From positions 1 through 36,724 of the forward strand of contig JAUVXE010000016.1 in assembly GCA_030603745.1 (NCBI GenBank): a stretch of 36,724 bases of DNA. The letters are read 5' to 3'. A model generated the notes under the pieces. The model saw only the letters and a program-made list of their open reading frames with translations, was not told the origin of the DNA and made no database searches. Shown piece after piece: positions 1 through 4,308 of this stretch (position 1 is the stretch's first letter; each line of letters begins with the position of its first letter). Source of the DNA: Coriobacteriia bacterium (lineage in GTDB: Bacteria > Actinomycetota > Coriobacteriia > Anaerosomatales > SLCP01). A program made the translations under genes and the position numbers.

Positions 1-1637
1 CCCGCGCAGTACTGGTAGGCGCTCTCCTCGCCGTCGTCGCGCGCGGGGTCTTTCGTGAGGAAGCGCATCGTGGCCGGGTCGTAGTGGCGCTGCGAGAGGT
101 AGTAGGTGGCCGAGTGGGCGTCGTAAGCATAGCCCGCGTAGCGCAGCGGCTGGCGGGCGGCGATCTTGGCGGCCACGTCGGACGTGATACCGGTGACTGC
201 GTTCGAGTCCTGCGTGAGCACCGCGCCGTAGGGGTCGTAGGTGTAGCGGGCGAAGGGCGCGCCTGCGGTGTCCGTGAGCGCGACGACGTCGCCTCGGTCG
301 GTCGTGGCGATGAGGAAGGTCACGGGTGAGGCGGTGCCGGCCGTGTACACACCCGCATACGGGCGCCCGTCCTCGTCGTAGAGGTAGGCGACCGCGTAGG
401 TGGTCTCGTCGGAGCGCGCAGCGTCAAGCGAGAGCAGCGTGATGCCGTCGTAGGCGTAGTCGGTCGTCGTGGTGGTGCCGCCTGCGGTCACGGTCGCCGA
501 CGTGCGCTGGCCGTTGCCGTCGTAGGTGTAGGCCGCCGAGTCGGTCCCGCGCTGCCAGCCGGTGAGGCGGCTCGCGTCGTCGTAGGTCCACAACGTCGTG
601 ACCCCCGATGCGGTCTGCGAGGTGCGCCGTCCGAGGTCGGGATCGTGGAAGTAGCTGGTGCTCAGGCCACCGGTCACAGAGGATGTGAGCCGGTCGTTCG
701 CATCGACCACGAACGTGGTCTGCGCGCCGTCCATGGTCAGGAGCTCCAGGTTGCCACGCGCATCGAACGCGTAGGCGCGCTGAGTGGGGCCGGTGGTCGC
801 GCCTTGGAGGCGGCCGGCATCGGTGTAGGCGTAGGATGAGGCCACCGGGGCGCCTGTCGTGATGATGCTCTCAGCCGTCTTTCGCGCGGTCTCGGGATCG
901 TAGGTGTAGGCGGCGTTGATACCGGGCGCGGTCTGCGAGACGAGCTTGCCCGCCGCGTCGTATCCAGCACTCGAAGCAACGTCTCCGATGCTCCAGGCCA
1001 CGCGCCGCCCCTCGGCGTCACGGGCCGTGACGGCACCCGTAAGCGCAACGCCCGCACCCGTCACGGTCCTGGCCGTCTCCCGGCCAAACTCGTCGTAGGT
1101 GATCTGCGTGGTGAGCCCGGCGTGTTCGACGGTGGCCACCGAGACCTTGTTGGCCGCGGTCGCATACGAGAGTGTGCTCGTGACGCCTGCGGGCGACTGC
1201 ACGACCTGCACGGGCCGTGAGAGCGTGTCGTAGGCGGTCTCGGTGCGCTTGACCTCTGCGCCTGCGACCTCGTGGACCTCTGTGGTCATGCGCCCGAAGG
1301 CGCCGTAGGTGTAGCGCACGGTGCGCCCGGCCGCATCGGTGGTGCGCACCGTGCGGCCGAGGCCGTCAAAGGCGGTCGTGGTCGTCTTGCCGCCCACACT
1401 CTCGGCGACCACGCGGCCCGCCTTGTCAAAGACGCGCGTGGTCAAGATGCCGTCGAAGTCGGTCTCGGAAAGCACCTGTGAGAGGGTGTTGTAGGTCTTT
1501 GAGGACGGCTCGCCGAGTGCCGCTGTCTTCTGGCGTCCGAGCAGGTCGTAGGAGAAGCTCGTGGCCGCCTCTTCCGGCGTGCCCGCGGCTTTCACACTCT
1601 CAGTGGTGCGGCCGGCGAGACGAACGTGAGCACACAT
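1..1637 (-). CDS. RHS/YD-repeat protein, 3' end beyond window
   Basis: The minus-strand frame is open from the left edge to an in-frame TAA at 1815-1817, which is the stop of cobC. Its only ATG is at 1637. It encodes about ten YD-type repeats (TYDDASRLTGW, TYDGNGQRTSATV, ITYDEFGRETART, SYDLLGRQ) and then the RHS core signature near residues 495-530: LRYAGYAYDAHS, YYLSQRHYDP, RFLTKDP. RHS proteins build a hollow beta-shell that holds a variable C-terminal effector, and that tip would lie off the left edge. What is odd is the N-terminus: YD repeats begin within about 20 residues of the start, there is no signal peptide, PAAR or other trafficking domain, and there is no Shine-Dalgarno sequence before ATG 1637. 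This is either a headless (truncated or displaced) RHS cassette or a gene disrupted at the C9 tract upstream. The family is certain; an intact gene is not. Confidence 0.85.
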   Translation of the reverse strand, partial: MCAHVRLAGRTTESVKAAGTPEEAATSFSYDLLGRQKTAALGEPSSKTYNTLSQVLSETDFDGILTTRVFDKAGRVVAESVGGKTTTTAFDGLGRTVRTTDAAGRTVRYTYGAFGRMTTEVHEVAGAEVKRTETAYDTLSRPVQVVQSPAGVTSTLSYATAANKVSVATVEHAGLTTQITYDEFGRETARTVTGAGVALTGAVTARDAEGRRVAWSIGDVASSAGYDAAGKLVSQTAPGINAAYTYDPETARKTAESIITTGAPVASSYAYTDAGRLQGATTGPTQRAYAFDARGNLELLTMDGAQTTFVVDANDRLTSSVTGGLSTSYFHDPDLGRRTSQTASGVTTLWTYDDASRLTGWQRGTDSAAYTYDGNGQRTSATVTAGGTTTTTDYAYDGITLLSLDAARSDETTYAVAYLYDEDGRPYAGVYTAGTASPVTFLIATTDRGDVVALTDTAGAPFARYTYDPYGAVLTQDSNAVTGITSDVAAKIAARQPLRYAGYAYDAHSATYYLSQRHYDPATMRFLTKDPARDDGEESAYQYCA

Positions 1638-1814
1638 GAGACCACGCGGCCAAACGACCTGCGAGCCCGGTTCATGAAGCCCCCCCCCGCTTCTTTCGAG
1701 AAGCGAGTCTTCGCCGGGTGGTGGCCCCTCACCGGCCGGCGTGTTCTGTTCTTGGTCGCAGCATACGGCGCGCTTGCCAGGTTCTGCAGCCCCTAGATTC
1801 TTCCCGGGATCGTC
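1638..1814. other. Gap between cobC and the RHS frame, with hairpin and C9 tract
   Basis: This 177-base stretch holds a 7-bp hairpin at 1688-1705 (arms CGCTTCT and AGAAGCG, plus-strand loop TTCG). A run of nine C (1680-1688 on the plus strand) adjoins it, so on the minus strand the hairpin is followed by G rather than T and is not a classic intrinsic terminator. No promoter is visible for the RHS frame. A 25-codon minus-strand frame from ATG 1675 (MNRARRSFGRVV...) overlaps the RHS start in another frame and ends quickly. Confidence 0.5.
1680..1688. repeat. Mononucleotide C9 tract
   Basis: Nine consecutive C on the plus strand (G9 in the sense of the RHS gene) lie about 45 bases upstream of the RHS ATG, next to a hairpin. 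Such tracts are hot spots for slippage and for sequencing or assembly errors. The frame that runs through the tract is the RHS frame itself. Confidence 0.7.
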
Positions 1815-2417
1815 TTACTCGATCGTTCGTGCCTGGCCGAACTCCTCGAGCATCCCGTGGCCCTCGACCACGCGCACCTCGGCCACCGCGGCGTTGCGGA
1901 TGTGAAACGCCCAGATGTCGCTTCGGGAGAGTCCAAGCAGCGCCACGAGCATCGCGCGGAAGACCCCACCATGCGTGCAGACAGCGTGACGCCCCCCGAG
2001 TTCGACGATCTCCTCGGCGATCGCAGCGGAACGGCGCTCGATGGAGGCGCGCGACTCCCCGCCCGGTGCGACCGGTGTCTCGTAGGCGCGATAGTCGAAG
2101 GTAAGGCCGCGCTCGGTGATCTCGTCCCAGGTGAGGCCCTCGGCGTGACCGAAGGCGAGCTCGATGAGCCGCTCGTCGGCTACCGGCCCGATGCCGAGGC
2201 GCGACCCCGCGTGTTCGGCGAGGGTGGCTGCGCGCGGCAGCGGGCTCGTCCACAACCGGTCGGGAGCGAACTCGACGATGCGCTCGGTGAGCAAGTCGAG
2301 CTGGCGTTCGCCCCTCGGCGTGAACGGGGAGTCACCGCGGCCCACGAAGCGCCCGGCCACGTTCGCCTCCGTCTCGGGGTGGCGGAGGATCAGGATCGTT
2401 GTGGCGTTCGCGCTCAT
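1815..2417 (-). CDS. cobC: Histidine phosphatase, probable alpha-ribazole phosphatase (CobC)
   Basis: This is a 200-residue histidine phosphatase (phosphoglycerate mutase superfamily). The phosphate-binding motif near the N-terminus reads LRHPETEAN, where the family usually has RHGxTxxN, so Pro replaces Gly after the catalytic His13. The second His lies in CTHGG, and SPLPRAATLAEHAG matches the SPLxRAxQTA block. In the cobalamin nucleotide-loop pathway CobC removes the phosphate from alpha-ribazole 5'-phosphate or adenosylcobalamin 5'-phosphate. The family alone does not fix the substrate; the call rests on position. Its ATG overlaps the cobS stop (ATGA at 2414-2417), and it is the last gene of cobU-cobT-cobS-cobC. 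Confidence 0.85.
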   Translation of the reverse strand: MSANATTILILRHPETEANVAGRFVGRGDSPFTPRGERQLDLLTERIVEFAPDRLWTSPLPRAATLAEHAGSRLGIGPVADERLIELAFGHAEGLTWDEITERGLTFDYRAYETPVAPGGESRASIERRSAAIAEEIVELGGRHAVCTHGGVFRAMLVALLGLSRSDIWAFHIRNAAVAEVRVVEGHGMLEEFGQARTIE

Positions 2418-3208
2418 GTGAGCACCAGCGAGGCGGCGATGAGCACCGCCGTCTCCGTGAGCAGCACGCTCGCGCCGAGGACGTCACCCGTGATGCCGCG
2501 GACCGGAAGCGAGAGCACGTGCGGCACCACCGGTGCCGCCACGAGCGCGACCGCCGCGAGAACGGCTGCGGAGCCGGGAGGCAGCCACGCGGCACACGCG
2601 CCAACGGCGACCCCGGTCGCGAGGAGCGCCGCGGCGAGCGAAAGCGCTCCCGGACGCCCGGCGACCGCCGCGCCGAGGCCCCCGGGACGAGCCGGCCGCC
2701 CGAGCCACGCGCCGAAGCTCGCGGCCAGTCTGCCCGCCACCAGGGCGAGCACGATCGGGGCGAGGAACGCCTCGGCGAGGAGGGGCGCGAGCGCGGTGAT
2801 CTGCGCGAACGCCACGAGCACCACGGCCGTTGTCCCGAACGCTCCGGTCGCCGAGTCGGCCATGATCTCGAGACGCCGCGCGGGCGAGTTCCCTCCCCAC
2901 ACCGCGTCGGCGACATCAGCGAGGCCATCCCAGTGCAGCATCCGCGTGGTCATCGCCCACGCGGCGACCACGAGCACGGCGATGAGCGCCGAGCGCTCCT
3001 CGAGCATCGTCTCGACCACCGGCACCCGTCCCGCGAGCCAGAGGAGCGCGACCGTCATCCCGCCGAGGACGAGTCCCACGAGCGGGAAGTAGCCGGCCAC
3101 ATCGGGACGCTCGCGGTCAGGCCACTCGGCGCGGAGCGGCAGAGCGGTCAGCAACGAGAAGGCGAGCGCCGCATCGCGCCGCGGACGGGATGTCAACGGC
3201 GAGCTCAT
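2414..3208 (-). CDS. cobS: Adenosylcobinamide-GDP ribazoletransferase (cobalamin synthase)
   Basis: This 264-residue multi-span membrane protein joins adenosylcobinamide-GDP to alpha-ribazole (or its phosphate) in the last assembly stage of vitamin B12. The CobS signature MLHWDGLADVADAVWGG lies near residues 88-105, preceded by AFSLLTALPL and YFPLVGLVLGG, as in known CobS proteins. Further hydrophobic segments run to the C-terminus, consistent with a polytopic inner-membrane enzyme. The frame is open further upstream, but ATG 3208 makes a 4-base ATGA overlap with the cobT stop and gives the usual length. It also overlaps cobC downstream, so translation is probably coupled. Confidence 0.95.
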   Translation of the reverse strand: MSSPLTSRPRRDAALAFSLLTALPLRAEWPDRERPDVAGYFPLVGLVLGGMTVALLWLAGRVPVVETMLEERSALIAVLVVAAWAMTTRMLHWDGLADVADAVWGGNSPARRLEIMADSATGAFGTTAVVLVAFAQITALAPLLAEAFLAPIVLALVAGRLAASFGAWLGRPARPGGLGAAVAGRPGALSLAAALLATGVAVGACAAWLPPGSAAVLAAVALVAAPVVPHVLSLPVRGITGDVLGASVLLTETAVLIAASLVLT

Positions 3209-4308
3209 GCGCGCGCGGGCCCCTCGGCGGGTGTGGGGGCGTCCTCGGCCCCGGCGACCCCTGCCTCGGCGAAGGTGGCCATGCCGGAGAGCATGCGGCA
3301 TGCGGCGTCCATGATGCCCATGGCGAGCGCGGCCCCGGTGCCCTCGCCCAGGCGCATGTCGAGTTCGAGGACCGGTTCCATGCCGAGGTGTTCGAGCACG
3401 CGGGTATGTCCGGGCTCGGCCGAGCGGTGCGAGGGGAACAGGTAGTCGGCCGCGTGGGGGGCGAGCGCGGTGGCCGCGAGCGCGGCGGCGCCGGAGATGA
3501 AGCCGTCGACGACCACGCAGGTGCGTCGCGCCGCACCTGCGAGCATGACGCCGGCGAGCGCGGCGATCTCGAGCCCGCCCACCGCGGCGAGCACGCCGAG
3601 CGGGTCGAGATCCGCGACCCGGTTGACCTCGAGCCCGCGCGCGATCACGGCGGCCTTGTGGTCGAGGGCCTCGGCGGGAAGACCGGTCCCGGGACCGGTC
3701 ACGAGGCGCGGAGCGACGCCGCAGTAGGCGGCGGTCAGTGCAGCGGCGGCGGTGGTGTTGCCGATCCCCATCTCGCCGGTGCCCAGGAGCAGGAAGCCCT
3801 CATCGATCGCCGCATCCGCGGCACTCGCGCCCACGAGCACCGCGCGTGCGGCCTGCTCGCGGGTCATCGCCGGTCCGAGCGAGAGATCGGCGGTTCCCGG
3901 CGCGATCGTGACCTGCGCGACCCCCGGGAACGCCGAGGTGTCCGCGGCGACGCCTACATCGTGCAGGCGGAGCTCCGCCCCGACCGAGGCGGCGAGCTGG
4001 TTGATCCCGGCCCCGCCCGCGGCGAAGTTCGCGACCATCTGCCAGGTGACCTCCTGCGGGAACGGCGAGACGCCCTGCGCGACCACGCCGTGGTCGGCCG
4101 CCATGAGCAGGATCGCCTTGCGCTCGACCGAGGGACGCTCGGTCCCCTGTACGCGCGCGACCCGTGCCGCGAGGTCCTCGAGCCGACCGAGGCTACCCGG
4201 GGGCTTGGTGAGCTGGTCGAGGCGGGCGCGGGCGGCCTCCTCGGCGGATGGGTCCGTGGGGGTGATGCGGTCGATGAGCGCGTCGAGCATGGTCGGATCG
4301 TGGGTCAC
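3205..4308 (-). CDS. cobT: Nicotinate-nucleotide-dimethylbenzimidazole phosphoribosyltransferase
   Basis: This 367-residue CobT activates the lower-ligand base by transferring phosphoribose from nicotinate mononucleotide, giving alpha-ribazole 5'-phosphate. Family landmarks in order are LTKPPGSLGRLEDLA near the N-terminus, ADHGVVAQGVSPFPQEVT, GEMGIGNTTAAAALTAA, VVVDGFISGAAAL, FPSHRSAEPGH and the C-terminal RLGEGTGAALAM, which contains the catalytic glutamate. The frame stays open hundreds of codons upstream through cobU and rluB, but the length and the GTGA overlap (4305-4308) with the cobU stop point to GTG 4308. A second candidate is ATG 4290. The stop overlaps the cobS start. Confidence 0.95.
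   Translation of the reverse strand: MTHDPTMLDALIDRITPTDPSAEEAARARLDQLTKPPGSLGRLEDLAARVARVQGTERPSVERKAILLMAADHGVVAQGVSPFPQEVTWQMVANFAAGGAGINQLAASVGAELRLHDVGVAADTSAFPGVAQVTIAPGTADLSLGPAMTREQAARAVLVGASAADAAIDEGFLLLGTGEMGIGNTTAAAALTAAYCGVAPRLVTGPGTGLPAEALDHKAAVIARGLEVNRVADLDPLGVLAAVGGLEIAALAGVMLAGAARRTCVVVDGFISGAAALAATALAPHAADYLFPSHRSAEPGHTRVLEHLGMEPVLELDMRLGEGTGAALAMGIMDAACRMLSGMATFAEAGVAGAEDAPTPAEGPARA

What the first reader, a model, noticed from the sequence alone, without database searches (positions are those of the whole stretch)
1..1688. Headless RHS core next to a C9 tract
The YD repeats begin almost at the only ATG (1637). There is no signal peptide, trafficking domain or Shine-Dalgarno, and a nine-base C run with a hairpin lies about 45 bases upstream. 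The frame is continuous through the tract up to the cobC stop. It could be a displaced RHS cassette that recombines with a full-length rhs gene elsewhere, a slippage-controlled gene or an assembly join.
Basis: partly seen in the sequence, partly recalled or inferred. Interest (0 to 1): 0.5.

Follow-up and report, generated by a model that had tools for sequence, protein, structure and literature searches.

The report
Broken rhs toxin-delivery gene remnant
The headless stretch is most likely the wreck of an ordinary bacterial toxin-delivery (rhs) gene that lost its middle and keeps only a scrap of its export signal, rather than a switch or a new kind of system.

Summary
The RHS core, lone ATG 1637 and C9 tract are real, but "no signal peptide" is wrong. 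In another frame, just after the tract, ATG 1675 opens a 27-codon frame whose first 20 residues match one relative's rhs signal peptide (best of 568 ATG-started 20-mers). RHS homology starts at core residue 7 in 9 of 11 relatives compared. The two pieces meet near 1619, out of frame; about 1,409 codons of the G039 homologue are missing. I count three rhs loci in the held genome (98.5% complete); no rhs N-terminal delivery region was found in it, so no full-length partner is held.

In 16 of 18 relatives' loci with cobC, hisC follows within 141 bp. Here hisC lies 2.3 kb from the end of contig C2, which opens with a 126-base repeated stretch (IS-like by recall only) and two small ORFs without family. 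I read this as a decayed rhs island between cobC and hisC; the C21-C2 link is inferred from gene order.

The C9 tract sits in Shine-Dalgarno position before ATG 1675. Slippage matters to the frame only from a GTG at 1732. An assembly error at the junction is not excluded. Low interest.

The parts
3..1619 (-). RHS/YD core fragment (core residues 7-545), up to the 'QYCA' core end at the contig edge; toxin tip not in the window
   Evidence: RHS_repeat and Rhs_assc_core matches; blastp homology begins at residue 7 in 9 of 11 relatives' rhs proteins
1613..1625 (-). junction zone where the signal-peptide remnant and the core meet out of frame
   Evidence: signal-peptide alignment runs to about residue 19-20 and core alignment starts at residue 7; the exact base is unknown because no parent gene is held
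1592..1675 (-). 27-codon frame MNRARRSFGRVVSCVLTFVSPAAPLRV*, of which about 19 codons are the rhs signal-peptide remnant
   Evidence: best of 568 ATG 20-mers against 7 relatives' N-termini, 1 of 5000 shuffles as good against G039
1680..1688 (-). C9 on + / G9 on -, in Shine-Dalgarno position, ending 4 bases before ATG 1675
   Evidence: the G039 homologue has GGGAGAGGGG before its ATG
1676..1708 (-). 9-bp hairpin that includes part of the G run
   Evidence: z -1.83, 10 of 200 shuffles fold as well
1730..1732 (-). GTG in frame with ATG 1675, upstream of the tract; use as a start not tested
1815..2417 (-). cobC-like histidine phosphatase gene, 5' neighbour; in relatives hisC follows it
   Evidence: PF00300; hisC follows in 16 of 18 relatives' loci with cobC

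Best explanation
It is a decayed rhs (polymorphic-toxin) gene. A signal-peptide-bearing rhs gene of roughly 2,000 codons stood between cobC and hisC. An internal deletion removed everything from inside the signal peptide to the middle of the YD core and left the two ends out of frame; a mobile element may have broken it further near its tip. Shown: the core, a signal-peptide-like frame that matches a relative's rhs signal peptide, the frame offset, no rhs N-terminal region found in the held genome, conserved cobC-hisC order in relatives, and hisC 2.3 kb from a contig end that opens with a repeated 126-base stretch. Inferred: that one deletion made the junction, that C21 and C2 are neighbours, that the repeat is an insertion sequence, that the 104-aa and 129-aa ORFs on C2 are tip and immunity gene, and that the core is not translated.
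For: The signal-peptide remnant is the best of 568 ATG 20-mers and closest to G039, whose core is also a homologue (57%). 9 of 11 relatives' rhs proteins align to the core by blastp from residue 7, the other two from 21 and 24. L064 frame residues 44-1452 (its M is residue 24) lie between the two aligned parts. N-terminal profile A1 finds nothing in G000 (best E 0.825); the first 676 residues of the L064 protein find nothing at E 0.001. cobC-hisC gap 90-141 bp in 16 of 18 relatives' loci with cobC, no rhs core between. hisC at C2:2297; first 126 bases of C10 recur at the C2 end. Pieces of rhs core without a head are also seen in a one-contig genome, G019: ten core segments beside one full-length gene.
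Against: No reads or second strain are held, so the junction is unverified. The core has no stop and GC3 of 0.87, so it shows no decay of its own; the deletion would have to be recent. The signal-peptide match is strong to one of seven N-termini only (26 to 3432 of 5000 shuffles do as well against the others), and the nearest core relative, G013, was not among them. The tip candidate on C2 has no match in 40 relatives; neither it nor the 129-aa ORF nor the IS-like peptide has a convincing family. C21 and C2 share no end sequence.
Confidence: 0.7

Rival explanations
1. Assembly artefact: the organism has an intact rhs gene here and the short-read assembly skipped about 4.2 kb and ended at the shared core end.
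For: Four contig ends (C21, C28, C14, C26) lie inside rhs genes; the two other rhs loci also look headless, which a systematic assembly fault could cause.
Against: No N-terminal region was found on any contig of the held genome; the later part of the missing stretch matches only C28 at 33% and, weakly, C14, which are other genes. The aligned pieces abut without a long shared stretch, whereas C14 and C26 meet in a 98-base overlap; but the parent gene is not held, so this is not a test. Headless core pieces also occur in a one-contig genome.
Confidence: 0.2
2. Orphan rhs module kept as a reservoir: a headless core (and tip and immunity gene) that can be loaded onto a full-length rhs by recombination, as reported for Salmonella.
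For: Several rhs core pieces stand beside a full-length gene in the same order (G019); pieces of core end with tips in G008:C45; orphan modules are described in PMC3967940 and PMC3150448 (passages seen).
Against: Signal-peptide-like remnant at its 5' end; no full-length partner or N-terminal region found in the genome; other cores 35-42% identical.
Confidence: 0.07
3. Slippage-controlled gene: C9 length changes switch translation on or off or choose the frame.
For: The tract lies in Shine-Dalgarno position; a GTG at 1732, in frame with ATG 1675, lies upstream of it.
Against: For the better-placed start, ATG 1675, the tract is upstream and cannot alter the frame offset; runs of this length are expected by chance (0.63 per window); either way what could be read is a cut signal peptide or a headless core.
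Confidence: 0.03

Closest known systems
Orphan rhs-CT/rhsI modules (PMC3150448, PMC3967940; passages seen)
   Same: RHS fragment without its own start and export signals; mobile elements near some; fragments of varying length
   Different: Here a signal-peptide-like remnant precedes the core and no main rhs gene was found in the genome; the core piece (539 aa, contig-cut) is longer than any of the ten G019 segments (18-370 residues)
Sec-exported rhs/WapA-type genes (WapA as described in a passage of PMC3967940)
   Same: The likely parent type among relatives: signal peptide (L064 and others), DUF6531 and YD repeats (L064), a C-terminal extension after the core end (L062)
   Different: The window copy lacks everything between signal peptide and core and is out of frame; its own tip is not seen
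G013:C72 and G013:C53 rhs genes
   Same: Core 69% and 61% identical
   Different: Reading frames of 1897 and 2198 aa; the first is cut by its contig end

Membership tests
rhs polymorphic toxin gene | YD/RHS repeats and Rhs_assc_core | tested here: met
   PF05593 1.1e-22; TIGR03696 1.1e-14, above cut-off. The full-length model NF041261 matches only in part, far below its cut-off (94.7 of 2000 bits)
rhs polymorphic toxin gene | N-terminal export and delivery region in frame | tested here: not met
   Only a cut signal peptide in another frame; no N-terminal region found in the genome
rhs polymorphic toxin gene | Variable toxin tip followed by an immunity gene | tested here: inconclusive
   Contig ends at the core end; candidates on C2 have no convincing family and the tip candidate no match in 40 relatives
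orphan rhs module | Lacks start and export signals | tested here: inconclusive
   The core frame has no start before ATG 1637, but a signal-peptide-like remnant precedes it
orphan rhs module | A main rhs gene with near-identical core in the same genome | tested here: not met
   Other cores 35-42% identical and headless as far as held
phase-variable gene | Tract length sets the reading frame or expression | tested here: inconclusive
   Tract is upstream of ATG 1675 and ATG 1637, downstream of GTG 1732; which start is used, and any effect on Shine-Dalgarno spacing, could not be tested

The most novel reading that the evidence does not exclude
This lineage has lost the rhs delivery head at all three of its rhs loci while keeping long open cores and, perhaps, immunity genes at junctions between housekeeping genes (cobC-hisC, rng-rplU), so that it no longer attacks but stays immune.
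Probability: 0.15. Interest if true: 0.4.

Novelty: new member of a known kind. Interest (0 to 1): 0.18.

Why it matters
It explains a puzzling start without a switch or new mechanism, and warns that an absent signal peptide should be looked for in the other frames. If the loss of all three heads is real, the genome would be a case of an rhs arsenal decaying to leftover cores and possible immunity genes.

Tried and rejected
Frame continuity to the cobC stop: true but 46% likely by chance and not coding-like. Hairpin: not strong; no promoter-like or terminator-like consensus site in 1580-1830. Same-genus comparison: only G000 itself is held. G037:C114 looked like a second break near the same residue, but RHS sequence continues upstream in another frame. 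G008:C45 core start: a YD repeat continues upstream, so not the same junction. Tip homologues: none in 40 relatives. IS identity of the C2 end: no family match for its 21 readable residues, so 'IS-like' is recall. The named-genome scan gave 29 loci: the six best from Coriobacteriia or Actinobacteria MAGs, the rest distant; none is this locus, and records of this genome may be left out there. A first signal-peptide test read the wrong frame and is discarded; one search replaces it. The first cobC-hisC count used 15 loci; one search used all 19 relatives' loci that one search returned (26 relatives had a match), of which one (L024) is an rhs locus without cobC.

Full report
What is there. The window is the whole of contig C21 of a 28-contig, 2.14-Mb genome, 98.47% complete. 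Its left edge is a contig end. On the minus strand a 545-aa RHS/YD frame runs from ATG 1637 to the edge, with RHS_repeat and Rhs_assc_core matches. C9 is at 1680-1688.

The frames around the tract were read. One, starting at ATG 1675-1673, reads MNRARRSFGRVVSCVLTFVSPAAPLRV and stops at 1594-1592. Its first 20 residues scored 37 against the signal peptide of the G039:C63 rhs protein, the highest of all 568 ATG-started 20-mers in the window (next 33); 1 of 5000 shuffles did as well. Against the six other N-termini, 26 to 3432 of 5000 shuffles did as well, so the match is to the G039 type; G013, the nearest core relative, was not among the seven. By a simple charge and hydrophobicity measure it is among the top 3 of 568. 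The G run ends 4 bases before this ATG; G039 has GGGAGAGGGG before its own. A GTG in the same frame stands upstream of the tract at 1732; the core frame has no start before 1637.

Where the break is. By blastp, core homology starts at residue 7 (window about 1619) in 9 of 11 relatives' rhs proteins and at 21 and 24 in the other two; by tblastn one distant match begins at residue 3, and some genome matches at 6. In L064 (G039) the frame residues between the two aligned parts are 44-1452, about 1,409 codons. So the window holds what look like both ends of such a gene, out of frame, without its middle.

Is there a full-length copy? Protein search of the genome finds three other rhs places: C28 (39%), C26 (42%) and C14 (35%). 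C14 and C26 share an exact 98-base end, so I read them as one gene: two other loci, three with the window. C28's RHS homology begins at residue 24-39 of its frame (at 3 in one of the 11 comparisons), which is residue 733-955 in the eight relatives' frames that are not cut at their start. C14's frame begins inside YD repeats after rng. An N-terminal profile from five relatives (A1) found nothing (best E 0.825). The L064 protein from its M to the junction found nothing in its first 676 residues; its later part matches C28 at 33% and, weakly, C14. No delivery head was found in this genome.

The other side of the gene. One search returned 19 relatives' loci; 18 hold cobC, and 16 of these have hisC 90-141 bp behind it with no rhs core match; in the other two hisC was not found. 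In G000 hisC is at C2:2297-3394, near C2's left end. Those first 2.3 kb hold, in order, a stretch that recurs as the first 126 bases of C10 and reads like the start of an IS transposase (recalled; no family match for its 21 residues), a 104-aa ORF, a 129-aa ORF that looks like a membrane protein by eye, both without a convincing family, and a nucleotidyltransferase (PF12281). I infer that C21 and C2 flank one rhs island, with the two ORFs as candidate tip and immunity gene. C21 and C2 share no end sequence, and the tip candidate has no match in 40 relatives, so this rests on gene order alone.

Artefact or real? No reads are held. For a real deletion: no head was found anywhere in the bin; the aligned pieces abut without an evident long repeat (not a test, as the parent is not held); and core pieces without a head occur in G019, a one-contig genome, as ten segments of 18-370 residues beside one full-length gene (they were not examined one by one). 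For an artefact: four contig ends lie in rhs genes and the other two loci are headless too. I give 0.7 against 0.2.

Function. The core has no start upstream of ATG 1637, and the signal-peptide frame ends after 27 codons. The simplest reading is that no Rhs protein is made. The stop-free core with GC3 0.87 suggests the break is recent.

Known or new. Start-less rhs fragments are described as orphan modules in PMC3150448 and PMC3967940 (passages seen; one literature search). This case differs by its signal-peptide remnant and the lack of a main gene in the held genome. It is a decayed member of a known kind.

Noticed in passing
L072 7745-9580 (G000:C14) and L027 8538-9737 (G000:C26): Another headless rhs lies between rng and rplU; its two contig ends share exactly 98 bases. 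Behind it are a 246-aa ORF without family and a transposase-like fragment (IS481 and IS3 models, below their cut-offs). rng is within 200 bp of rplU in 22 of 24 relatives' loci.
   Followed up: partly
L052 and L141 (G003:C28, about 141501-142509): A relative of another genus has a 35-45-residue scrap of an rhs core end just before rplU, with an rng-like end upstream (by eye); it is closer to the window's core (89%) than to the C26 rhs (50%).
   Followed up: partly
L026 7451-11530 (G000:C28): A third rhs locus, 1360 aa to the contig end, with DUF6531 but no N-terminal region found; the DNA before it reads like a gene on the other strand (by eye).
   Followed up: partly
L126 1-127 (G000:C2) and L131 1-126 (G000:C10): Two contigs start with the same 126-base stretch, IS-like by recall, so this element is repeated in the genome.
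   Followed up: partly
L132 and L066 (G019:C1, 768650-786615): In a one-contig relative a full-length rhs stands beside ten core segments on the same strand within about 18 kb, probably an orphan array.
   Followed up: partly
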